Shown piece after piece: positions 29,436-40,721 of a stretch of 64,000 nucleotides of DNA. Position numbers and translations under genes: made by a program. A model generated the notes under the pieces. That model made no database searches. It saw only the letters and a list, made by a program, of their open reading frames with translations, and was not told where the DNA came from. The stretch spans positions 1 through 64,000 of the forward strand of contig NZ_QEHR01000005.1 of NCBI RefSeq assembly GCF_003095375.1, read 5' to 3'. Position 1 is the stretch's first letter, and each line of letters opens with the position of its first letter. The stretch is from Marixanthomonas spongiae (GTDB lineage: Bacteria; Bacteroidota; Bacteroidia; Flavobacteriales; Flavobacteriaceae).

Positions 29436-29462
29436 TTGGTTGCTATGAATTTACTACATTTG
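29436..29462 (+). promoter_or_regulatory. Promoter of the DPP III gene
   Basis: TTG (29436-29438) and TACATTTG (29455-29462) are a -33/-7 pair 16 nt apart. This places the transcript start near 29468 and rules out the ATG at 29448 or GTG-type starts upstream. Confidence 0.65.
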
Positions 29463-29483
29463 CTGAAACTAAAAATCAACAAA

Positions 29484-31526
29484 ATGAAGAATACTTTTAT
29501 CTTGGCTGCTTTTTTGAGCGGCTTGCTGTTTTTTTCGTGTGCTGAAGAAAAAAATAAAAAATCCACACCGGAAGTTGCTGAAACAACGTCCCAAACCGAT
29601 GATTTTGACTATCAAGTAGATCAATTTGCCGATATTAGGATATTGCGTTATCAAATTCCTGGCTGGGAAGACCTTTCTTTAAAAGAACAAAAACTGGTGT
29701 ATTACCTTACCCAAGCAGGGTTGGAAGGCCGTGATATTATTTGGGATCAAAATTACCGTCACAACCTAAAAATACGTGAGGCGCTGGAAAATATTTACAC
29801 CACCTATGAAGGCGACAAAGCTACAGACGATTGGAAAAACTTTGAAACCTACCTGAAAAGGGTGTGGTTTTCCGGTGGCATACACCACCATTACAGCACG
29901 GCCAAAATGAAGCCCGATTTCAGTAAAGAATATTTGCAAACATTACTGGACGAAACCAATACCCAACTTACGGGAGAAGCTTTTGAAGTATTGTTCAACG
30001 ATAAAGATTCTAAAAAGGTAAACCTGAGCAAAGATGCCGATATTGTTAAAGAAAGTGCCGTGAATTTTTACGGTCCCAATGTAACCACGGCCGATGTGGA
30101 AAATTTTTACGGAAACGTGAAAGTAGATGATAACGAGCCCATTGAAGTTGGTTTGAATACGAAACTGGTCAAGGAAAATGGCAAGTTGGTCGAGAAAACC
30201 TGGAAAAGTGGGGGTATGTACGGTTCGGCAATCGATAAAATAGTGGAATGGCTGGAAAAAGCCAAAGGAGTCGCCGAAAACCCACAACAAGAAAAAGCGT
30301 TAAGCCTGTTGATTGAATATTACAAAACCGGCAGCTTAGATACGTGGGATGACTATGCCGTGGCTTGGGTAGAATCTACTGAAGGTGACATCGACTGGAT
30401 CAACGGATTTATTGAAGTCTATAACGACCCAAAAGGGTATAAAGGCTCTTATGAATCGATTGTACAAATCAAGGATTTTGATATGTCCAAAAAAATGGCC
30501 GTTCTTTCTGAAGAAGCACAATGGTTTGAAGATAACTCCCCTTTGATGGAAGAACATAAAAAAGACAGTGTTAAAGGAGTATCATACAAAACAGTTATCG
30601 TCGCCGGGGAAGCCGGGGATGCCTCTCCCAGCACGCCCATAGGTGTGAACTTGCCCAACAACAATTGGATACGCCAAGCTCATGGAAGCAAATCTGTTTC
30701 TTTGGGCAACATTATAAACGCTTATAACAATGCCGGCGGAAGTGGTCGTTTGCACGAGTTTGCCCATGATGAAGAAGAAGTAGAACTGGAAGAAGAATAC
30801 GGCAAAAATGCCGATAAATTGCACACCGCCCTTCACGAAGTAGTGGGGCATGCTTCTGGACAGATAAACGAAGGTGTTGGTACTCCAAAAGAAACATTGA
30901 AAAGCTATAAATCTACCATCGAAGAAGGCCGTGCCGATCTTTTTGGGCTGTATTACCTAATGGATCCCAAAATTGAAGAGTTGGGGCTTACCGATAACTG
31001 GGAAAAAACAGGGAAAGCCGCTTACGACGGGTACATCCGTAACGGTTTGATAGGCCAGTTGGTTCGTTTGGAATTGGGTGACGACGTAGAAGAAGCTCAT
31101 ATGCGCAACCGCCAATGGGTAAGTGCTTGGGCATTCGAAAAAGGAAAAGACGAAGGCGTGATCGAAAAAGTAACCCGCGACGGTAAAACGTATTACGACA
31201 TTAAAGACTACCAGAAATTGCGTGAGATTTTTGGCGAACTGTTGCGCGAAACACAGCGTATTACTTCCGAAGGTGATTATGAGGCTGCCAAAGCCTTAGT
31301 TGAAGATTACGGTGTAAAAGTAGATCAAGAACTTCATAAAGAGGTATTGGAGCGAAACAAGCAGTTTAAGTCGCCTCCTTACAGCGGTTTTGTTAATCCG
31401 GTAATCGTTCCAAAAACGAATGAGGAAGGTGCTATAGAAGGTTTCAGTATTGAACAACCCGCTTCTTTTGAAGAGCAGATGTTGCAATATTCTGAACAAT
31501 TTGGAAATCTTCCGGTGGAAAATTAA
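29484..31526 (+). CDS. Dipeptidyl peptidase III, M49 family, lipoprotein
   Basis: A 680-aa lipoprotein (LFFSC, Cys16). The zinc motif HEVVGH is at residues 451-456, which fits the M49 HExxxH-type site. The second motif EEGRAD at 480-485 supplies the third ligand. DPP III removes dipeptides from peptide N-termini. Secreted or lipidated forms are frequent in Bacteroidota and serve peptide feeding. ATG at 29484 is chosen because of the promoter and lipobox. A strong terminator follows. Confidence 0.93.
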   Translation: MKNTFILAAFLSGLLFFSCAEEKNKKSTPEVAETTSQTDDFDYQVDQFADIRILRYQIPGWEDLSLKEQKLVYYLTQAGLEGRDIIWDQNYRHNLKIREALENIYTTYEGDKATDDWKNFETYLKRVWFSGGIHHHYSTAKMKPDFSKEYLQTLLDETNTQLTGEAFEVLFNDKDSKKVNLSKDADIVKESAVNFYGPNVTTADVENFYGNVKVDDNEPIEVGLNTKLVKENGKLVEKTWKSGGMYGSAIDKIVEWLEKAKGVAENPQQEKALSLLIEYYKTGSLDTWDDYAVAWVESTEGDIDWINGFIEVYNDPKGYKGSYESIVQIKDFDMSKKMAVLSEEAQWFEDNSPLMEEHKKDSVKGVSYKTVIVAGEAGDASPSTPIGVNLPNNNWIRQAHGSKSVSLGNIINAYNNAGGSGRLHEFAHDEEEVELEEEYGKNADKLHTALHEVVGHASGQINEGVGTPKETLKSYKSTIEEGRADLFGLYYLMDPKIEELGLTDNWEKTGKAAYDGYIRNGLIGQLVRLELGDDVEEAHMRNRQWVSAWAFEKGKDEGVIEKVTRDGKTYYDIKDYQKLREIFGELLRETQRITSEGDYEAAKALVEDYGVKVDQELHKEVLERNKQFKSPPYSGFVNPVIVPKTNEEGAIEGFSIEQPASFEEQMLQYSEQFGNLPVEN

Positions 31527-31652: not shown

Positions 31653-31674
31653 AAATACCCGTTATTGGGTATTT
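31653..31674. promoter_or_regulatory. Dyad 1, AAATACCC-N6-GGGTATTT, past the end of the cluster
   Basis: A perfect 8-bp inverted repeat with spacer GTTATT, 14 bases beyond the stop of the last cluster gene. The same dyad occurs at 39567-39588 and 40016-40037. No promoter or gene start lies next to this copy, so its role is unclear. Confidence 0.75.
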
Positions 31675-31688
31675 TCAAAGAAGAAACT

Positions 31689-32474
31689 TTAATGGCACAG
31701 ATTATAAAAATCACATAATTCTTGATCGATTTGTTTTTGGGTTAAACCTAATTGCAAGAGGTTTTCTGTAAGTTTTGTAATTTCATTTTTTTCCCGTTCA
31801 TAATCTGCAGCTGTAAGGTATTTAAAAGCGTTAAACTTAATTTGAGTAAAATTAGGAAACTCTTTTTGAGATACACCCCACGCAAAAGAATTGCCTTTTG
31901 TGAGCAGGACATCATCAACAAAAAGAGTAATGGAATTACCGTACACGCCTATTTTCGAAAGTGTGTTAGTGGTATTGTTTCTTAAGAAAAAATAATAGTA
32001 TTCATTCGGTTTTTTTTCATTCCACGAAAAAGTGATTTCATTACTGAAAATACGTATGCTGTCTTTGGGTTCTATTAATATATCCAGCAAATTGTCCCGA
32101 TAAACGTTACCGGTATGCTGCTTGGTGTTTTCGGCACCTTTTAATTGTTTCCAAACATAGGTAAAGTATTTTTTGGAGAAAGTGTCTTCATCAAACGGTT
32201 TGGGATAGCTTTTAATTTCCGGAACATTATATTTCCCGGTATCGTTAAGTTCATATAGCCTTCCTTCCTGATCGACAAACAATACCTTGTTGTCTTTTAA
32301 AAGTTCGATAGTGCCACTTTTTACCAAAGCACCTTTTTTTAGTGTTTTAGTAGAACTGTCAATAGTATTGGTAGGAGAACCTTCGGTTTTATAAACTATG
32401 AATTCTTGTGCTTGCGTCGAAAGCGATGCTAAAAAGAAAATAAACATCAATCTTGAAAAAAATAGCTTTTCCAT
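31689..32474 (-). CDS. Secreted FecR-like protein, last gene of the CHASE2 cluster
   Basis: A 261-aa periplasmic protein with signal peptide (ends STQAQ). Residues ~25-80 (YKTEGSPT, LKKGALVKSGTIELLKDNKVLFVDQEGRLYEL) resemble the FecR-type beta domain that follows the pattern KxGxxVxxG...L.dGs.v.l. The middle part (~145-205) is beta-rich with FSWNEKKPNEYYYFF. The C-terminal ~50 residues are helical and end CDFYNLCH. Its start overlaps the CHASE2 gene by 28 bp, so translation is coupled. It may sense or scaffold CHASE2 in the periplasm; this is inferred from position. Confidence 0.7.
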   Translation of the reverse strand: MEKLFFSRLMFIFFLASLSTQAQEFIVYKTEGSPTNTIDSSTKTLKKGALVKSGTIELLKDNKVLFVDQEGRLYELNDTGKYNVPEIKSYPKPFDEDTFSKKYFTYVWKQLKGAENTKQHTGNVYRDNLLDILIEPKDSIRIFSNEITFSWNEKKPNEYYYFFLRNNTTNTLSKIGVYGNSITLFVDDVLLTKGNSFAWGVSQKEFPNFTQIKFNAFKYLTAADYEREKNEITKLTENLLQLGLTQKQIDQELCDFYNLCH

Positions 32475-33625
32475 TTGTATCTTTTGTTTAATTTAAAAAT
32501 CAAAATTTTATATAATCCTATGAACTCTACGCTTAACACCAGTACAGCAATAATCAATTCTGGTTTAAAAAGAATATTTATTTTATATAACCATAATGAA
32601 AACCATAATAGAAATACTGTAAACAAAAGTTGAACAATCTTTTTATTGAGCATATAACTCACAGGTTTTTTAGTACTGGCATACATAAAATACAACAGCG
32701 CTAAATATGAGATTATTCCAGTTATAAATAATATTGCCCAATTAGGTATTACTTTAATAAAATCATTGTTTATGAGCATTGCAATAATATTAGCGTGGAT
32801 TAGGACACCAAACATATCTGGAGGGCTTTTACCTGCTGTTTTAATGTTCAAAGGAGTGAAAAATTTATCTTCAATATCATAGTAATTATTATGGGGGGTG
32901 CCCAAGTAGCCAATCAATACAATTTTATCTTTTAAAAAAGGATGGGTATCTGTTTCCATAAATTCTTGGTACGAGAATGTAAAAAACTGATCTGATGTGC
33001 CACTGTAATTTATTGGTATTGGTTTTGAAAGCTTCTCTCTCATTCTTTTATGGTTCCATTTATCTTCCAAAAATTGTTTTGAAACCAGTGTTGAAAAAGA
33101 TGTTTGTGTACTGTCGCTAATATTTTGATAGCCTTCGAACTCCCGTATAACATCTGTTTTTAAATTAAAATTTAAATTGGAATACCCTACAAGTTCAGGG
33201 TTTTTTATAAAGGGAGCGGCGTTGTAGGCCCAAGATTTGCCTAAAAAAGCTTTGGAAAGTATGACGTTGTCGGGCTGCAAACTGTTGCCTAAAAGAGAAT
33301 CTACATAGCTGTCCTTTTTATCTTTGAAGACTATATCAAGACCAATTACTTTTGGTTTTTGTTTTTTTACGTGTTCTATTAATTGATGTATTTGAAACCT
33401 GTCCTTGTGTTCTATATTGACCACCACAATATCTTTAACAGGTTTTTTATCGAACATTTCCTGCGAATAATAGAGGTCTAAAAAACTAAAGTCTTTAAAT
33501 GCATTTGTGAATGGATTAAATATAGAAAGATTAACAATGAGAAATGAAATTAAGTAAATTACAATTACTGAAAATACAAGGCACAGGCCCGCATCTTTCA
33601 TCAATAATTTAAAACTCTGTTTCAT
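32447..33625 (-). CDS. Stand-alone CHASE2 membrane sensor
   Basis: A 392-aa inner-membrane protein. One N-terminal helix (~13-35) leads into a large extracytoplasmic CHASE2 domain (~50-285; VKDIVVVNIEH, KPKVIGLDIVF, KDKIVLIGYLG, DMFGVLIHANIIAMLI), followed by three helices (~290-380) and a short basic tail. In most known proteins CHASE2 feeds a kinase, cyclase or other output domain; here none is attached, so the output must come from partners. Its start overlaps the channel stop by 4 bp (ATGA) and its end overlaps the FecR-like gene. Confidence 0.88.
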   Translation of the reverse strand: MKQSFKLLMKDAGLCLVFSVIVIYLISFLIVNLSIFNPFTNAFKDFSFLDLYYSQEMFDKKPVKDIVVVNIEHKDRFQIHQLIEHVKKQKPKVIGLDIVFKDKKDSYVDSLLGNSLQPDNVILSKAFLGKSWAYNAAPFIKNPELVGYSNLNFNLKTDVIREFEGYQNISDSTQTSFSTLVSKQFLEDKWNHKRMREKLSKPIPINYSGTSDQFFTFSYQEFMETDTHPFLKDKIVLIGYLGTPHNNYYDIEDKFFTPLNIKTAGKSPPDMFGVLIHANIIAMLINNDFIKVIPNWAILFITGIISYLALLYFMYASTKKPVSYMLNKKIVQLLFTVFLLWFSLWLYKINILFKPELIIAVLVLSVEFIGLYKILIFKLNKRYKWKSYFFQD

Positions 33626-34308
33626 TTTTTGTTGATTTTAGTTGCTTTGGAAAGTGCCGCTGCAACAATACCTGCGGGTACCGTTACAATGCCTAAACCG
33701 ACAATTAAGATACAGAACGTAAACAATTTACCTCCAGTGGTAATAGGATATATATCGCCATAACCAACAGTTGTTAAAGTTGAAATAGACCACCACAGGC
33801 TGTGGAAAATAGATTTAAATTTTTCTGGTTGTACCTCATGTTCAAAATAATAAATGCCTACAGCCGATAGATACAATAAAATGGCTGTTATAAACAAAAA
33901 CAAAATAACTTCTTCTTTGGCCTCTACGGCGGCTGTTTTAAAACGAGTAAGGGCTTTATTATAGCGAACTAGTTTTAATACCCGAAAGATTCTAAAAACC
34001 CTGAAAGCCCTAAGCGATCTTAAATCTACACCAATAGCGATGTAAAATGGCAAAATGGCCAATAAATCAATAATACCATAAAAACTGAAAATATAACTAA
34101 GTTTAGAGCTTGAAAAGTAAATACGTAAGATGTATTCAATTGTAAAAACCGCAATACAGACAACATCGAAAATTTTTAAAAAGATTACAGTTTTTGGGTG
34201 AAGGTTTGGTATGGTTTCTACCGCAAAAGCAATCATGGAAAGCACGATGAGTATTTGAATAAAAATATCAAAACGCCTTCCTAATCTGGAATTTACATTG
34301 GTGATCAT
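33622..34308 (-). CDS. Voltage-gated potassium channel
   Basis: A 228-aa six-helix channel. The S4 helix has Arg at every third position (around residues 96-115). The pore loop carries TTVGYGD (filter at residues 180-185), diagnostic of K+ selectivity. The S6 helix is followed by a short KINKK tail with no RCK or cyclic-nucleotide domain. A TTG at 34326 would add six residues; ATG at 34308 fits better. It sits between the M48-Sel1 and CHASE2 genes and overlaps the latter. Likely role is to change membrane potential or K+ content when the cluster is active. Confidence 0.93.
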   Translation of the reverse strand: MITNVNSRLGRRFDIFIQILIVLSMIAFAVETIPNLHPKTVIFLKIFDVVCIAVFTIEYILRIYFSSSKLSYIFSFYGIIDLLAILPFYIAIGVDLRSLRAFRVFRIFRVLKLVRYNKALTRFKTAAVEAKEEVILFLFITAILLYLSAVGIYYFEHEVQPEKFKSIFHSLWWSISTLTTVGYGDIYPITTGGKLFTFCILIVGLGIVTVPAGIVAAALSKATKINKK

Positions 34309-34341
34309 GTTTCTTAAAAATTGCAAGGAAAAATTTTTAGT

Positions 34342-36120
34342 TTACCATTGGCCTAATCTCGTTAAGTAGTTAATGGCCTCTACATTTCCTTGCTTTGCAG
34401 CTTTTTTCCACCAGGATACTGCCAAATCTTTATCTTTTTTAACTCCTTTTCCTTTATAATAAAGCCAACCTATTCGTTCTTGAGCGTGAGCGTTGCCTTT
34501 ATTTGCTGGGGTGATGTACATGTTGTAAGCATCAGGGTACATTCGTTTATTAAAATAAGAATCTCCCTTGATCACTTGTTTTGCGATAGTTTCAACTTTA
34601 GTCTCTTTAGATTCTGTTTTTTTAACAGGAATGCTCTTTTTCGGATTTTCTTCGGCTTCAACTTTTGCTAAACCTTCTGCTGCATATGGGTGGTTGCCTT
34701 CTGCAGCTTTATTGAACCAAAACCGTGCATTTTTTAAACTTTTAGACACGCCGTACCCCTCAAAATAGCAAGTTGCTGCCATATACTGTGCTTCAACATC
34801 ACCTTGTTGTGCTGAAGAAATATACCAGTTTAATGCTTTACTGGCATCTTTTTCCACACCCCTTCCATATAAGTAGAGATTTCCTAAAAGATGTTGGGCT
34901 TCTGCATTTTTGCTTTCTGCTGCTTTTGTCAATAACTTGAATGCTTTACTGTACTCTTCATTTTGAATGTAAAGAGCAGCCTTCTCAACAGATTCTTTTA
35001 CGCTCATCCCATTAATGCCTTCTTCAATTTTTTCAAACTCACTGGTGGCTATTACTTCAATTATATCACTGTTTTTATCTGCATCTTGTGATCGGGTCAA
35101 AAATTGGTTTCCAAAAATGATGGCTTTATCGTAGTTTTTATTTTTATAGTATGATTTGCTTAAATGGTACACTACAGATGTATTTGCAAAAAAAGCAGTG
35201 TTGTCTATAGGTGAGTTGGTATATAACTCACTAATTTCCTTTATTCTTTGGTCTTTATCGAGGCCCTCAATGCTTAAATAGTTGACATACGCATCCATTG
35301 CTTTTTCTTGATTCTCTATACCTGTGTAGCAGATCGCTTCAAAATAACGTATATCTTCAGTGTAACCTTTATAATACCTGTTTCTGGCGACGCTTAGTTG
35401 CTTTAAGGTCTTTTGGTAGTCATCTTTAATTAAGGATCGACTTTTTAATTTATTGTCAATCATCTGCACTAATTTTAGTGCTACTTCACTTTCGTCTTCT
35501 TTTCTAACTTTAATAGTGAGGGCTTTGTTTTTTACAGATTTCCAGCCTTCTTCTGCTTTTTGAGTCCTGTCTGCTCGTGCTGGGTGAGACGAAGTGGCTT
35601 TTTCAGGTAGTTTACTGGTAACTAACAATGTTTCTTCTAAAGAAGCTCCTAAATTTGCCAGTGCTCGTCCGGCAAAATAATCTGCTTGTAGTTCATAATC
35701 ATGATTACTGCTGCCGTTATTTAAGCTATGCCCATTTAAATGGTGTCCAATTTCATGTGCAAGTACAAATTTACCAGACCAGTCATTCGAAGTGCTATTG
35801 ATAAGGCTTTGCAGCCAATCACTATCATATATTATATACCGGACATCTTCACCTTGAATAGGTATGATTTTGGCTACTGCATTTTCAATGTTTGAACATT
35901 CTTTAAGCTCAAAACCTGCTTTACTTACCCCTGCAGTTTGAACAATTTCATTAATAATATCTTCTACTTCTTTTGGTGTGCTCATAAAACCCAATCCAAT
36001 GGTTTGACAAAGTTCATCTACCTCTTCTTCGGTTTCAGCTTTTACCACGTCTTGAAATTTTTGCGAAAAAACAGGGCTTATTGTGAAAAAAATGAAACCC
36101 CAAACTACTATTTTTTTCAT
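34342..36120 (-). CDS. M48-like metalloprotease with C-terminal Sel1 repeats
   Basis: A 592-aa protein with signal peptide (ends PVFSQ). QDVVKAE (23-29) comes right after it. The M48-type zinc site HEIGHH is at residues 122-127, with a downstream YELQADYFAGRAL that gives the third ligand Glu. The middle region (~190-370) is helical and TPR-like. The last ~200 residues hold Sel1-like repeats (AQHLLGNLYLYGRGVEKD, AQYMAATCYFEGYGVSK, AQERIGWLYYKGKGVKKD). Sel1/TPR regions bind partner proteins, so this is a periplasmic protease with its own substrate-recruiting scaffold. It lies 43 bases after the 163-aa gene. Confidence 0.88.
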   Translation of the reverse strand: MKKIVVWGFIFFTISPVFSQKFQDVVKAETEEEVDELCQTIGLGFMSTPKEVEDIINEIVQTAGVSKAGFELKECSNIENAVAKIIPIQGEDVRYIIYDSDWLQSLINSTSNDWSGKFVLAHEIGHHLNGHSLNNGSSNHDYELQADYFAGRALANLGASLEETLLVTSKLPEKATSSHPARADRTQKAEEGWKSVKNKALTIKVRKEDESEVALKLVQMIDNKLKSRSLIKDDYQKTLKQLSVARNRYYKGYTEDIRYFEAICYTGIENQEKAMDAYVNYLSIEGLDKDQRIKEISELYTNSPIDNTAFFANTSVVYHLSKSYYKNKNYDKAIIFGNQFLTRSQDADKNSDIIEVIATSEFEKIEEGINGMSVKESVEKAALYIQNEEYSKAFKLLTKAAESKNAEAQHLLGNLYLYGRGVEKDASKALNWYISSAQQGDVEAQYMAATCYFEGYGVSKSLKNARFWFNKAAEGNHPYAAEGLAKVEAEENPKKSIPVKKTESKETKVETIAKQVIKGDSYFNKRMYPDAYNMYITPANKGNAHAQERIGWLYYKGKGVKKDKDLAVSWWKKAAKQGNVEAINYLTRLGQW

Positions 36121-36163
36121 AATGTTTATTTATATAAATTTCCGACAATAATTTGCCATTGTA

Positions 36164-36655
36164 TTATTGATTGTTTTTTGTTAAGAACGAAACTAAATTT
36201 TTCCGTATGCCAATTACTTCTTGGCCTTCTAGATTTATAAAGCCTATTTTTTTGGTTTTTGAATCCAATAAAATTGAAAGCTCACAGTTTTGTGCGCAGA
36301 GCTCAAATTGAAAATCAGGTTCAAACGATACTTTTTTGTTGGTAGCAACGACGTAGTTAGCGGGATTTGTAATTTCAGAAATGAACTTATCAACAGCATT
36401 TTTTATTATACTGTCTGTTTTTACAGCTTTTTTTCCATATTGGTTTGTGGTTCCTTCAATCAGTACATCTTCAATCTTGTACATGACTATTTTTCGTGTG
36501 TTTTGAATATGTCCTAATTTTGCCTTGCCTACTGTTTTTCCCAAATCGACAGTTTCCTCTTTTACTACGTCTTGCGAACTATATATACTTTTTTTTTGTC
36601 CTTTACAGCAAATTGTTAGGGCACAGACTAATAGGGTGACAGTTAGCTTTTTCAT
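36164..36655 (-). CDS. Small secreted cluster protein with QDVVKEE motif
   Basis: A 163-aa protein with a hydrophobic N-terminus and Cys residues at 16-17 (TICCKGQ), so either a lipoprotein or a cleaved signal peptide. QDVVKEE lies at 28-34 and is followed by KTVG and, further on, a KIVMYKIED stretch. The papain-like protease upstream shows the same order (QDVVKEE, KTVG, KYRMYAKV) in its region after the catalytic domain, which suggests shared ancestry of this part. Its start is 1 base beyond the protease stop. I do not recognise a family. Confidence 0.65.
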   Translation of the reverse strand: MKKLTVTLLVCALTICCKGQKKSIYSSQDVVKEETVDLGKTVGKAKLGHIQNTRKIVMYKIEDVLIEGTTNQYGKKAVKTDSIIKNAVDKFISEITNPANYVVATNKKVSFEPDFQFELCAQNCELSILLDSKTKKIGFINLEGQEVIGIRKNLVSFLTKNNQ

Positions 36656-38101
36656 TTAAGATCGTTTTATGTCCAACACCATCATTGCTGTTGTGCCTTT
36701 TTCAAACTTTGCATCAAACTTCATTTTGTTTTTTGACAGTTTCATGTGTTCTTTAGCAATCAAGCTGTCATTAAAAATCATGTATAATTTATCAAGCATA
36801 TCACCTTCAAGGGTGTCTAATTGTTCTTTTACTTTTTTTGTGTCTATTTTTTCGAGGGAGAAAACAACAATTGTGTAGTCGGAATCAACATCTTTGTTAA
36901 GCCTGAAAAAATATTTTTCTCCAGGAATCACCAGCTCGGCTTCTGTATTGTCAAAATATGGGGATATTCCATCTTGATGCGGAAACAGTACCCCGTTTTC
37001 ACCAGCGCTGTCTGCAGCAAATACATATACGTAGCTTGGTTGGTTAACTTTTGCATACATGCGGTATTTGGTTTCTTTTGGGTAAGAGGTAGTGGTTTTA
37101 TAGTCACCTACTGTTTTATCGTTGGTTTCTTCTTCTTTTACAACATCTTGCCAGCCCAAAACGCTTTTTTTGAAAGACGCACCCCCTTTTATCACTTGCA
37201 TTTCGGCACCACCTTTCAGCTCAATTCTTAATTCACCTGCTAAGGTTTTGAGCTTGTTTACCGGTTTAGGTTTTGGGATGATTTCTAATGCATAACGGGT
37301 ATAATTAACAAAATCATCATATTTTACCCAGATATATCCATTATTGCCCCAATCTGTCCCCCAGCTGTTTATGATTTCAAAAGCACCGCCGTATTTTTCA
37401 TCATCAAAGCCTACAACGCACATGGCGTGGCCACCTCCAGTTAGTTGATTGTCTGGTACGTAAACTCCTTTGGCAATGTGTAATGCTTTTTCTACCTTAA
37501 AACCAATAATTACCGGGTTACCATTGTGTATGGCCCGTTTTACGTTTTCAATTTTTTCTTGTTTGGTTTCGCTACCTACAATAACACGGTTATATTCCTT
37601 GATAACATTAGATTTTGCTTTTTCAAAAATAGTTTCAGGAATGTCATCGTCACAAAATTGGGCGTCTTTGTAATCTTCAAAATATGGAGATCCATCTTCT
37701 ATTAAAGACCTTAAAGCACGGTCCAAGGAGGCGCCTTTTTGGCAATTATAACTATTTTCTTTCGTCGCAGCGTTTAGGTAGGTAAAAATGGGAGAGAAGG
37801 CTATTTTATTTATTTCTTCTTGCTCTTTTAACTCTAACTGCTTGGCTTCTACAATGGTACGGCCGTAATAGGCAGTTGCCCAACCGGTACAGGTGCCATA
37901 TCCTCCTTGACTTCTAACCACAGGAGCATATTTTTTAATCGAAGCCTGAGTTATATCGGCCAGATCATCAAAAAATGCGACATTTTTGGGTTTCGCAGGT
38001 ATCTCTTCGTAAGCTTCGTCATCAAACACCAACCCTGTACCATGCTGAGCAAGACACAGGGGGGCGATTAATAAAATAATATAAAAAGAAAATTGTTTCA
38101 T
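36656..38101 (-). CDS. Papain-like C1 cysteine protease with DUF4384-like tail
   Basis: A 481-aa secreted protein (signal peptide ends CLAQ). The C1A fold is clear: Cys71 in GTCTGWA, His225 in GGGHAMCVVG and Asn245 in INSWGTDWGNNGYIWVK, with an oxyanion Gln in RSQGG. No pro-domain is seen. A linker with QDVVKEE (318-324) leads to a beta-rich region (~345-480; YRMYAKVNQPSYVYVFAADS, GVLFPHQDG, PGEKYFFRL) like DUF4384, which often accompanies caspase-like proteases. It is the third gene of the operon. Its substrate may be another cluster protein; this is inferred. Confidence 0.88.
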   Translation of the reverse strand: MKQFSFYIILLIAPLCLAQHGTGLVFDDEAYEEIPAKPKNVAFFDDLADITQASIKKYAPVVRSQGGYGTCTGWATAYYGRTIVEAKQLELKEQEEINKIAFSPIFTYLNAATKENSYNCQKGASLDRALRSLIEDGSPYFEDYKDAQFCDDDIPETIFEKAKSNVIKEYNRVIVGSETKQEKIENVKRAIHNGNPVIIGFKVEKALHIAKGVYVPDNQLTGGGHAMCVVGFDDEKYGGAFEIINSWGTDWGNNGYIWVKYDDFVNYTRYALEIIPKPKPVNKLKTLAGELRIELKGGAEMQVIKGGASFKKSVLGWQDVVKEEETNDKTVGDYKTTTSYPKETKYRMYAKVNQPSYVYVFAADSAGENGVLFPHQDGISPYFDNTEAELVIPGEKYFFRLNKDVDSDYTIVVFSLEKIDTKKVKEQLDTLEGDMLDKLYMIFNDSLIAKEHMKLSKNKMKFDAKFEKGTTAMMVLDIKRS

Positions 38102-38121
38102 AGAAATTATTTAAACTTTAA

Positions 38122-38784
38122 TTATTGACGGTTGGACAATCCATCAAGATCTTCGAATAAACGACCCTCTCCCTCATCTATGTATTCGTCATTCACATCG
38201 TCATTTTTTTCAATAATAATTAATCCATATTCAGCATCGATAATCCCATTTTGCCCTATACTTCCTGAAATTGCTATCCCGTTTATAAACGTAACAGGAC
38301 CAGATGAACCGGGACTTGTTCCGCTGGTTTTGACGATAATCGTGAAGTTATTACCAGAACCAGTTATGTAGGATTCAACCCCTGTTTCCGTCGAAACGCT
38401 GTTCCCGTCAGAATCAATTTGTGAACCGGAGTATTCTATTTTTAAGCTTTCATTATCTTGGCCAAATAAAGAAATTAACTTATCTAAAAAAACATCGCCC
38501 GTTTCATAGCCGTCCCCAGGAATATTGGTGGCTTTTAATGTGAAAGGACTCATTAAGTAAGTTCCTTCTACTTCTGGCGGGGTGTTTCCTGTGTTAACGG
38601 TTATTCCTAAGTCTAACAAACCTTGGTAGGCATCTTCGGTTAAAAAGTCTATAATATCGTCTTCTGTTCCTGTAAAACCTAAATCTTCGCCATCTTCAAG
38701 GAATGATGCTTCTGATTCAACATCGCAGGACGCCAGACCCAACAGCGATATAAAAAGTGTAATGTATATATATGATTTTTTCAT
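38122..38784 (-). CDS. Acidic lipoprotein of the CHASE2 cluster
   Basis: A 220-aa lipoprotein (LLGLASC, Cys20) with a very acidic mature N-terminus (DVESEASFLEDGEDLG). The body is beta-rich (YLMSPFTLKATNIP, FTIIVKTSG, GIAISGSIGQNGIIDAEYGLIIIEK) and the end is acidic again. I do not recognise a family. It lies 25 bases after the beta-barrel gene and 20 before the protease gene. Likely on the periplasmic side of the outer membrane. Confidence 0.7.
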   Translation of the reverse strand: MKKSYIYITLFISLLGLASCDVESEASFLEDGEDLGFTGTEDDIIDFLTEDAYQGLLDLGITVNTGNTPPEVEGTYLMSPFTLKATNIPGDGYETGDVFLDKLISLFGQDNESLKIEYSGSQIDSDGNSVSTETGVESYITGSGNNFTIIVKTSGTSPGSSGPVTFINGIAISGSIGQNGIIDAEYGLIIIEKNDDVNDEYIDEGEGRLFEDLDGLSNRQ

Positions 38785-38809
38785 TGTATTGTGTTTTAAA
38801 TTGAGTGTT

Positions 38810-39511
38810 TTAAAGTATGTTGAAACGTAAGGAAATGTTCAGCGTAACAGGGGTTTTGTTTTTAAACGTCACTTCGTCCACTTGATCTTCAACGCCTAAT
38901 AACTTTTCGTTGTTAAAAGTAAAAAGAGTAGGGGTTGTCAAAGCATCGGCCCCTACAAAAACTCCATTAACAATTTTCCAAGTTAGCCGTAGTCCTCCAG
39001 CCACATAATAACTGCTTCCGTAACTAACCTCGTCCGACTTTCGTTGAAAATGTAGCCACCCCAATCCAAGTAATGGAGATATTTCAAAATTTGTGTCGAT
39101 GGGATCACCTAAAGCGAAATCATATTTTAGAGCAAAATACCCATCATAAGCCCTAATATCTTCTCCGCCAATAATCGAAAAGTATCCCAAGGATCCAAAT
39201 CCTAAACCAGATTCGTTAAAATCTGCGTTGACCACTAAGCCTATACCTACGTTAAAAATGTTTTCATCATTTGAAAAACTCTGTGTGTCCCCATCTTGGG
39301 TAATTTGAATTTCATCGATGAATAATGGAATAGGCATAAACATTACGCCTAAAGAATATTCTTTGAAGGTTTGTACCTTATCTTGTGCGAAAGATTCTTC
39401 TAAAGCATACTCATAAGTTTCTCCGGGAGCTTGTGGAAATAAGCTGGTTTCTTGTGCTTTAGAAGTGGCCCAGCACAAAACGCACAACACAATTAATGTA
39501 ATTTTTTTCAT
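38810..39511 (-). CDS. Outer-membrane beta-barrel protein, first gene of the CHASE2 operon
   Basis: A 233-aa protein with signal peptide (ends TSKAQ). The remainder alternates polar and hydrophobic residues in strands of 9-11 (YSLGVMFMPIPLFI, FNVGIGLVVNADF, YFALKYDFALG, YVAGGLRLTWKIV) and ends in VTLNISLRFNIL, a typical barrel closure. It lies 55 bases downstream of dyad 2 and behind a near-consensus -7 box (TACTTTTA, 39539-39546 minus). Confidence 0.78.
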   Translation of the reverse strand: MKKITLIVLCVLCWATSKAQETSLFPQAPGETYEYALEESFAQDKVQTFKEYSLGVMFMPIPLFIDEIQITQDGDTQSFSNDENIFNVGIGLVVNADFNESGLGFGSLGYFSIIGGEDIRAYDGYFALKYDFALGDPIDTNFEISPLLGLGWLHFQRKSDEVSYGSSYYVAGGLRLTWKIVNGVFVGADALTTPTLFTFNNEKLLGVEDQVDEVTFKNKTPVTLNISLRFNIL

Positions 39512-39538
39512 AATTAAAATTTGGTTTATAATTTTTGT

Positions 39539-39588
39539 TAAAAGTAAGTTAAGAGGGAATAGTAGTAAATACCCATTATTGGGTATTT
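39539..39588 (-). promoter_or_regulatory. Dyad 2 and promoter of the eight-gene CHASE2 operon
   Basis: AAATACCC-N6-GGGTATTT (39567-39588, spacer ATTATT) lies upstream of TACTTTTA (39539-39546), one base off TAnnTTTG. The dyad centre would be about 45 bases upstream of the inferred transcript start, where LuxR/NarL-type activators usually bind. The dyad overlaps the last codons of the regulator gene. Confidence 0.65.
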
Positions 39589-39983
39589 TTTGTAAGAAAT
39601 GCCTTTTTCGATTCGCTATTGTTGTATTTATAAGCCAAAGATTGCAGTTGTCGGCTTCCTTTTATCTTGAGTTTTTTAATAATGTTTTTTCTATGGGTGC
39701 CAACTGTTTGTTGGCTTATGGAGAGCATTGCTGCAATTTCTTTAGAGCGCAATCCGTTGCCCACCAACGTGAATATTTGAATCTCCCTCGGGCTGAGGTT
39801 TTTGATTTTCGGACTTTTTTGCTCTAATATTAAAGAATAGTAAATTGCCTTGTCTATTATCCTTTTGCTTTCTGATATCTGTTTCAAGGCGTCCAATACA
39901 GCTATCGTTTCATTATTATTTAACTGTAACGAATTTTTTTTTGCCTTTTTAAGAAGTTCCGTTATTTTTTTGTACGTGTTCAC
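39576..39983 (-). CDS. LuxR/NarL-type HTH regulator (HTH only)
   Basis: A 135-aa protein beginning at GTG. Residues ~55-120 are a LuxR-type HTH (LSPREIQIFTLVGNGLRSKEIAAMLSISQQTVGTHRKNIIKKL). The first ~50 residues are helical (KKITELLKKAKKN, IAVLDALKQISESKRIIDKAI). There is no receiver or ligand domain, so activity may depend on dimerisation or a partner. Dyads of the same sequence lie upstream of it and of the next operon, which fits self-regulation. A -7 box TACTTTTG (39988-39995 minus) is so near the GTG that the mRNA may be almost leaderless. Confidence 0.88.
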   Translation of the reverse strand: MNTYKKITELLKKAKKNSLQLNNNETIAVLDALKQISESKRIIDKAIYYSLILEQKSPKIKNLSPREIQIFTLVGNGLRSKEIAAMLSISQQTVGTHRKNIIKKLKIKGSRQLQSLAYKYNNSESKKAFLTKNTQ

Positions 39984-39987
39984 AGCA

Positions 39988-40037
39988 CAAAAGTAGATGC
40001 TTTACAAAATGCATAAAATACCCAATTCAGGGTATTT
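39988..40037 (-). promoter_or_regulatory. Dyad 3 and promoter of the LuxR-type regulator
   Basis: AAATACCC-N6-GGGTATTT (40016-40037, spacer AATTCA) and the -7 box TACTTTTG (39988-39995, minus strand) lie in front of the regulator. The dyad is centred about 45 bases upstream of the predicted start of transcription, the same spacing as in front of the downstream operon. Confidence 0.68.
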
Positions 40038-40285: not shown

Positions 40286-40290
40286 AAAAG

Positions 40291-40316
40291 TGTATTTTTA
40301 TCAAAACAAAAATACA
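40291..40316. promoter_or_regulatory. Divergent promoter with TGTATTTTT/AAAAATACA dyad
   Basis: A 9-bp inverted repeat with an 8-nt centre between divergent genes. The right arm contains TATTTTTG on the minus strand, a match to TAnnTTTG for the small membrane protein. The left arm gives TATTTTTA on the plus strand for the MazG-like gene. Confidence 0.55.
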
Positions 40317-40331
40317 ATTAAACAAATCAAT

Positions 40332-40721
40332 ATGAAGCATAAAATTGCCGCGGTGAGCAAATTTCATCAAGCTTTTGGCTTAGGGATTAATAAAACTCCC
40401 ACAGCAAACTTGGGAACCGAAAAAAACTTGTTGCGCTATACTTTGATGTGTGAAGAAAATGAAGAATATTTAGAGGCCGCGAATGCCAATGACTTGGTAG
40501 AAGTGGCCGATGCCTTGGGCGATATGCTTTATATATTGTGCGGGACCATTATTGAGCACGGGATGCAACACAAAATAGAAGAAATATTCAACGAGATACA
40601 ACGTAGCAACATGAGCAAATTAGGTGCCGATGGCAAACCTATTTGCAGGGAAGACGGTAAAATTTTAAAAGGCCCTGATTATTTTAAGCCCAATATCCAG
40701 GCTATTTTGAAAAATGAATAA
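40332..40721 (+). CDS. MazG-like nucleoside triphosphate pyrophosphohydrolase
   Basis: A 129-aa all-alpha NTP pyrophosphohydrolase-fold protein. The metal-binding pattern is EENEEYLEA followed by EVADALGDMLYILCG (ExxE...ExxD type). The tail (MSKLGADGKPICREDGKILKGPDYFKP) is the conserved nucleotide-side region of this subfamily. It probably hydrolyses non-canonical or excess nucleotides. The frame is open from 40290, but MKHKIAAVSKFH at 40332 is the likely start. Confidence 0.88.
   Translation: MKHKIAAVSKFHQAFGLGINKTPTANLGTEKNLLRYTLMCEENEEYLEAANANDLVEVADALGDMLYILCGTIIEHGMQHKIEEIFNEIQRSNMSKLGADGKPICREDGKILKGPDYFKPNIQAILKNE

What the first reader, a model, noticed from the sequence alone, without database searches (positions are those of the whole stretch)
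31689..39983. CHASE2 / K+ channel / two-protease cluster: candidate undescribed envelope-stress or defence system
Nine minus-strand genes with gaps of at most about 65 bp, several overlapping, combine a LuxR-type HTH regulator, a beta-barrel, a lipoprotein, a papain-like protease with DUF4384-like tail, a small secreted protein, an M48-like protease with Sel1 scaffold, a voltage-gated K+ channel, a stand-alone CHASE2 sensor and a FecR-like protein (seen in sequence). CHASE2 usually feeds an output domain on the same chain; here the sensor has none, and channel and FecR-like genes overlap it. DUF4384-like tails, CHASE2 and FecR-like domains are known companions of caspase/CHAT-type proteins in Bacteroidota and cyanobacteria (family knowledge from memory). 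I infer one system where an envelope or stress signal is sensed by CHASE2/FecR, proteases act in the periplasm and the channel shifts K+ or membrane potential. A protective or suicidal outcome cannot be told from sequence.
Basis: partly seen in the sequence, partly recalled or inferred. Interest (0 to 1): 0.85.

Follow-up and report, generated by a model that had tools for sequence, protein, structure and literature searches.

The report
CHASE2-linked exported protease gene cassette
Nine neighbouring genes in a marine flavobacterium encode an exported protease system built around a membrane sensor with no internal signalling part; the same sensor pair recurs in distant Bacteroidota beside either papain-type or caspase-type proteases, so this looks like a real, undescribed module whose purpose is still unknown.

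Summary
Nine minus-strand ORFs (31689-39983) form one block with gaps of at most 64 bp; CHASE2, Kv channel, M48+Sel1, C1 papain+DUF4384 and LuxR HTH are confirmed by Pfam. "FecR-like" is not: no FecR profile match; the predicted fold holds an FN3-like domain. The block is not a chance assembly. CHASE2 and its overlapping partner (FecRl) occur together in 6 of 199 family genomes and are otherwise absent. C1-DUF4384, a small lipoprotein and mostly M48 accompany them in 14 loci of about ten genera. The full nine-gene order recurs in Ulvibacter and a Dokdonia MAG; a congener lacks the block. In a sister clade the same pair sits beside an exported WD40-caspase instead. Two loci of other classes carry CHASE2, FecRl, papain-DUF4384 and caspase in one operon. 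All effectors have signal peptides and CHASE2 has only a ~17-residue cytosolic tail, so I infer that the sensor acts outward, through FecRl, on exported proteases. Channel, barrel, lipoprotein and LuxR are clade-specific additions. A 16-bp palindrome upstream of the operon, 3 of 8 genomic copies at this cluster, is a likely operator. Nothing supports phage defence specifically. Verdict: real, undescribed, widespread; biological outcome unproven.

The parts
39576..39983 (-). LuxR/NarL-type single HTH regulator, 135 aa, no receiver domain found
   Evidence: GerE 9e-17; same first position in L011 and L013
38810..39511 (-). exported protein, possible outer-membrane beta-barrel, 233 aa
   Evidence: signal peptide by eye, no Pfam; conserved in L011, L013, L027
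38122..38784 (-). lipoprotein, 220 aa
   Evidence: lipobox by eye, no Pfam; conserved in L011, L013, L027
36656..38101 (-). exported papain-like (C1) protease with C-terminal DUF4384, 481 aa
   Evidence: Pfam; Q65, C71, H225, N245 invariant in 13 of 13; nearest solved structure 3ois
36164..36655 (-). SmSec: small lipoprotein between the two proteases, 163 aa
   Evidence: conserved family of 12, Cys17 near-invariant; model pLDDT 84, no confident fold match
34342..36120 (-). exported M48-type metalloprotease with Sel1 repeats, 592 aa
   Evidence: Pfam; H122, E123, H126, E143 invariant in 17 of 17
33622..34326 (-). Kv-type potassium channel, 234 aa, no C-terminal ligand domain (clade-specific member)
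   Evidence: Ion_trans 2.5e-42, Kv/KvAP matches, TVGYGD and arginine-rich S4 in the sequence; in WIN, L011, L013 only
32447..33625 (-). stand-alone CHASE2 sensor, 392 aa, core
   Evidence: CHASE2 5e-25; N-terminal TM, periplasmic domain, C-terminal TM cluster; median tail after last TM 17 aa over 51 homologues
31689..32474 (-). FecRl: exported partner of CHASE2, 261 aa, core
   Evidence: start overlaps the CHASE2 stop by 22-31 nt in nearly all flavobacterial loci; model pLDDT 82 with FN3-like domain
40019..40034 (.). palindrome TACCC-N6-GGGTA, likely operator, 36 bp before luxR
   Evidence: same spacing in L011 (37, one mismatch) and L013 (36)
39570..39585 (.). second copy of the palindrome, between luxR and the barrel gene
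31656..31671 (.). third copy, 18 bp past the FecRl stop, at the 3' end of the block

Best explanation
The block is an accessory operon (gained or lost as a unit) for an extracytoplasmic sensor-protease system. Core: CHASE2, anchored in the inner membrane with its sensor domain in the periplasm, and its translationally coupled exported partner FecRl. Since CHASE2 has almost no cytosolic part, I infer that it signals sideways in the periplasm: a ligand or the state of the envelope changes the CHASE2-FecRl complex, which then holds, releases or activates exported proteases. Here these are the papain-DUF4384 enzyme and the M48-Sel1 enzyme, with the small lipoprotein as tether, chaperone or inhibitor. 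In sister lineages the same pair works with an exported WD40-caspase. The LuxR gene controls the operon through the TACCC-N6-GGGTA palindromes. Shown: conservation, linkage, export signals, intact catalytic residues, exchange of protease class. Inferred: physical complex, direction of signalling, operator function. I think the likeliest use is proteolysis of envelope or surface proteins under stress.
For: CHASE2 and FecRl in the same 6 of 199 family genomes and adjacent in 29 of 34 loci, L027 counted across an assembly gap; FecRl adjacent to 10 of 15 further stand-alone CHASE2 loci, against 0 of 20 cyclase-length CHASE2 controls. C1-DUF4384 orthologues (about 800 bits or more) in exactly 3 of 199 genomes, all with CHASE2. 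Full nine-gene order in L011 and L013. Protease exchange: WD40-caspase directly after FecRl, caspase-type clade 98/99, CHASE2-FecRl-papain-caspase in one operon in L111 and L113, caspase-CHASE2-FecRl in L175, found with FecRl as seed, papain-DUF4384 followed by caspase in L066, L067, L070. Signal peptides on all proteases. Catalytic residues invariant. Own genome has no C14 caspase. Block absent in a congener. Palindrome.
Against: 15 of 51 CHASE2 genes in the tree have no papain or caspase gene recognised by my models within 6 genes, for example L122-L124. In L008 and L042 the proteases lie on the opposite strand, convergent with CHASE2-FecRl, so one transcript is not universal. No interaction, transcript or activity data. 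My CHASE2 and FecRl models come from flavobacteria and lose distant members. Loci share descent, so counts are not independent. Signal peptides were judged by eye.
Confidence: 0.55

Rival explanations
1. A regulated-death or anti-phage system: CHASE2-FecRl senses damage and the proteases (papain/M48 here, caspase elsewhere) kill the cell, with the K+ channel depolarising the membrane.
For: Exchange with caspase-type proteases; caspase-TPR and CHAT-TPR genes beside the caspase-type loci; patchy distribution and loss.
Against: All proteases are exported, unlike the cytosolic protease effectors of known defence systems (general knowledge); no meaningful PADLOC match; housekeeping neighbours; channel in one small clade only.
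Confidence: 0.17
2. An exported protease set for protein or peptide feeding or surface processing, with CHASE2-FecRl sensing the substrate or wall fragments; no stress role.
For: Exported proteases of families with often broad specificity; marine flavobacteria degrade proteins (general knowledge); clade-specific barrel and lipoprotein genes.
Against: No transporter or SusCD pair in the block; exchange with caspases, which usually have narrow specificity (general knowledge).
Confidence: 0.2
3. Two unrelated units (CHASE2-FecRl pair and protease operon) that merely sit at one insertion hotspot.
For: Convergent arrangement in L008 and L042 and several CHASE2-FecRl pairs without a recognised protease.
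Against: Recurrence of the same partners in distant lineages at different genomic sites, including single operons.
Confidence: 0.08

Closest known systems
Burkholderia BiofilmReg operon (response regulator, periplasmic LysM-FecR protein, CHASE2 histidine kinase; PMC5192318)
   Same: A CHASE2 membrane sensor encoded beside an exported FecR-type partner
   Different: There CHASE2 feeds a cytosolic kinase; here there is no kinase, no LysM and the neighbours are exported proteases
Orthocaspases (prokaryotic metacaspases) with WD40, DUF4384 or CHASE2 accessory domains (PMC3501461, PMC7475262)
   Same: Same accessory parts; relatives of this module use exported WD40-caspases
   Different: The window and its whole genome have no caspase domain; a papain with DUF4384 and an M48 enzyme stand in its place, and CHASE2 is a separate gene
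Bacterial C1 cysteine protease of PDB 3ois
   Same: Best solved relative of the papain domain
   Different: DUF4384 tail and operon context

Membership tests
CHASE2 sensor proteins (PF05226) | CHASE2 domain | tested here: met
   89 bits, cut-off 26.3
CHASE2 transmembrane receptors (kinase/cyclase type) | cytosolic output domain on the same chain | tested here: not met
   392 aa, about 12-17 residues after the last TM; no second domain
FecR (PF04773) | FecR domain | tested here: not met
   not among the families matched by 28 members at E<=1, 25 of 28 families shown; PF04773 search of seven genomes hits other genes only
Papain family C1 | Gln, Cys, His, Asn active site | tested here: met
   Q65, C71, H225, N245 invariant in 13 of 13
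M48 metalloproteases | HExxH plus downstream Glu | tested here: met
   H122, E123, H126, E143 invariant in 17 of 17
Orthocaspase (C14) systems | caspase p20 domain | tested here: not met
   no C14 in the block or in the genome
Known anti-phage systems (PADLOC 2023) | match to a system component set | tested here: not met
   only weak HExxH and HTH matches
BiofilmReg-type CHASE2/FecR two-component operon | histidine kinase and response regulator | tested here: not met
   no kinase or receiver domain in the nine genes
NarL/LuxR regulators | GerE HTH with operator binding | tested here: inconclusive
   HTH met; palindrome present and conserved; binding not tested
Kv potassium channels | S4 arginines and TVGYG filter | tested here: met
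   sequence, Kv matches; conduction not testable here

The most novel reading that the evidence does not exclude
A previously undescribed class of outward-acting signalling system in Bacteroidota: a stand-alone CHASE2 membrane sensor and a dedicated periplasmic adaptor control exchangeable exported proteases (papain-DUF4384, M48, WD40-caspase), with no cytosolic output at all.
Probability: 0.4. Interest if true: 0.82.

Novelty: new variant of a known kind. Interest (0 to 1): 0.62.

Why it matters
CHASE2 is a very common bacterial sensor domain whose ligands are unknown and which is usually read as the input of a cytosolic enzyme. A conserved lineage with no such enzyme, tied instead to exported proteases that can be papain-type or caspase-type, would be a new way to wire a sensor. 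It would also give bacterial caspase homologues, whose role is a long-standing open question, a defined sensor partner and a compact operon to test genetically.

Tried and rejected
Fusion of CHASE2 and FecRl in Aequorivita L027: rejected, the frame runs through an assembly gap of N. K+ channel as partner of a caspase-papain operon in G131 (L066): rejected as probably coincidental; that channel lies next to miaA, as does the window genome's own channel paralogue at 39% identity. FecR membership: rejected. PADLOC capP match of the M48 gene: weak, a shared HExxH region. FecRl hit in G059: 35.7 bits, no CHASE2 in its region, dismissed. Fold search for the small lipoprotein: no match below E 0.001. 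The palindrome as plain terminator: less likely, since in L019 it lies between divergent genes and the sequence is conserved across genera, but not excluded. Literature: no paper with CHASE2, FecR and caspase together, none with CHASE2 and CHAT domain, none on stand-alone CHASE2; the library holds open-licence papers only.

Full report
Observation. The nine minus-strand ORFs between 31689 and 39983 are real and tightly packed (gaps). Pfam supports CHASE2, Ion_trans, M48 with Sel1, Peptidase_C1 with DUF4384 and a GerE HTH; the FecR-like protein, the small protein, the lipoprotein and the barrel have no family at the curated cut-offs. The block has lower GC (0.32-0.36) than most of its surroundings. 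It is bounded by a convergent M49-type peptidase gene (29436-31526) and, on the other side, by a small minus-strand ORF and the MazG-like gene at 40290-40721.

Is it a unit? In 199 genomes of the family the CHASE2 protein is found in five. The FecR-like family (FecRl) is found in these and in G015, whose contig ends inside a CHASE2 gene. Thus both occur in the same six genomes and neither occurs alone, apart from one dismissed 35.7-bit match in G059. A scan of GTDB contigs with the CHASE2 alignment gave 32 loci. Gene neighbourhoods show FecRl next to CHASE2 in 29 of 34 loci, counting L027 across an assembly gap, and mostly with a 22-31 nt overlap, a sign of translational coupling. In 14 loci, counting the window and L121, C1-DUF4384 is present; the small lipoprotein is present in 13 of them and M48-Sel1 in 12. 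The complete nine-gene order is in Ulvibacter litoralis (L011) and a Dokdonia MAG (L013); barrel and lipoprotein also occur in an Aequorivita MAG (L027). So channel and LuxR are additions of one clade and are not the core.

A control. PF05226 was searched in 296 genomes of the phylum. Stand-alone CHASE2 loci taken from this and from other seeds outside the first scan have FecRl adjacent in 10 of 15 cases, while 20 CHASE2 proteins of cyclase-like length have it in 0 of 20. These 15 include relatives of one genus and some loci of the family itself, so the contrast, not the exact ratio, is the evidence.

The protease arm is exchangeable. In Winogradskyella, Leeuwenhoekiella, Lutibacter and several MAGs the pair is followed by a protein of 1150-1700 aa with an exported WD40 region and a C-terminal caspase (Peptidase_C14) domain, and is mostly preceded by another lipoprotein family. 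Caspase-TPR and CHAT-TPR genes often lie alongside. A maximum-likelihood tree of CHASE2 puts most caspase-type loci in one supported clade (98/99) and the papain-type loci elsewhere. In two loci from other classes of the phylum (L111, L113) CHASE2, FecRl, C1-DUF4384, a 166-170 aa protein and a caspase follow each other on one strand. In another family of the order (L175), found with FecRl as the seed, the operon is caspase-CHASE2-FecRl. Relatives of C1-DUF4384 without CHASE2 are followed directly by a caspase gene in G012, G114 and G131. The parsimonious reading, which is inference, is an ancestral sensor pair with both cysteine proteases, of which lineages kept one. The window's genome has no C14 domain at all.

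How it may work. All proteases of both types start with signal peptides, judged by eye. Active-site residues of C1 and M48 are invariant. CHASE2 has an N-terminal TM segment, the periplasmic domain, a C-terminal TM cluster and then only about 17 residues. A cytosolic output is therefore unlikely, and FecRl, an exported protein with an FN3-like middle domain in a model of pLDDT 82, is the obvious partner. I infer that the pair gates or positions exported proteases. The small lipoprotein gene lies next to the protease genes in most papain-type loci and could be an inhibitor, tether or chaperone; its model (pLDDT 84) matches no solved fold.

Regulation. The palindrome TACCC-N6-GGGTA occurs three times in the window, all at the edges of the block or between luxR and the next gene, against 0.06 expected. 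The whole genome holds eight, with two for the reversed control pattern; of the five others three lie inside genes. It sits 36-37 bp before the luxR start in the window, L013 and, with one mismatch, L011, and before the first gene C1-DUF4384 in L016, L019 and L023. It resembles the 7-2-7 operators of NarL-type regulators (from memory). A role as an operator is likely but untested; the copy at the 3' end could also be a terminator or a trace of insertion.

Gain and loss. In a congener (G054) the same flanking genes, 67-98% identical, enclose a Mutator-family transposase and a different lipoprotein instead of the nine genes; one palindrome copy remains. The Ulvibacter block lies at the same genomic site as the window's.

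What is known. A periplasmic FecR-type protein beside a CHASE2 kinase is described in Burkholderia (PMC5192318), and CHASE2, WD40 and DUF4384 are known accessory domains of cyanobacterial orthocaspases (PMC7475262; see also PMC3501461). I found no description of stand-alone CHASE2 with an exported partner and exchangeable proteases, within a library of open-licence papers. Hence 'new variant of a known kind', with a fair chance that it is more. The weak points are the absence of any functional data, loci with the pair but no recognised protease, and the untested direction of signalling.

Noticed in passing
window 31656-31671, 39570-39585, 40019-40034: Palindrome TACCC-N6-GGGTA, three of eight genomic copies at this block; conserved upstream of the operon in other genera.
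   Followed up: yes
L073 9118-11332 (congener G054): Transposase of the Mutator family and an unrelated lipoprotein occupy the site of the nine-gene block; one palindrome copy stays.
   Followed up: partly
L016, L017, L019, L023: A second CHASE2 gene follows FecRl in Maribacter, Croceivirga and relatives.
   Followed up: partly
L110 4758-6704: One protein with a weak FecRl-like N-terminus, a caspase domain and an outer-membrane beta-barrel, directly after a stand-alone CHASE2 gene: a possible natural fusion of partner and protease.
   Followed up: partly
L041 11169-13073: Stand-alone CHASE2 in a Bacteroidales MAG followed by a protein with weak FecRl and transglutaminase-like (papain-fold) matches, with a caspase gene nearby.
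   Followed up: no
L066, L067, L070: Papain-DUF4384 and exported caspase genes in adjacent pairs without CHASE2.
   Followed up: partly
G000 contig C2 446102-446785: Second Kv-like channel beside miaA, seen also in G131; looks like a housekeeping paralogue.
   Followed up: partly
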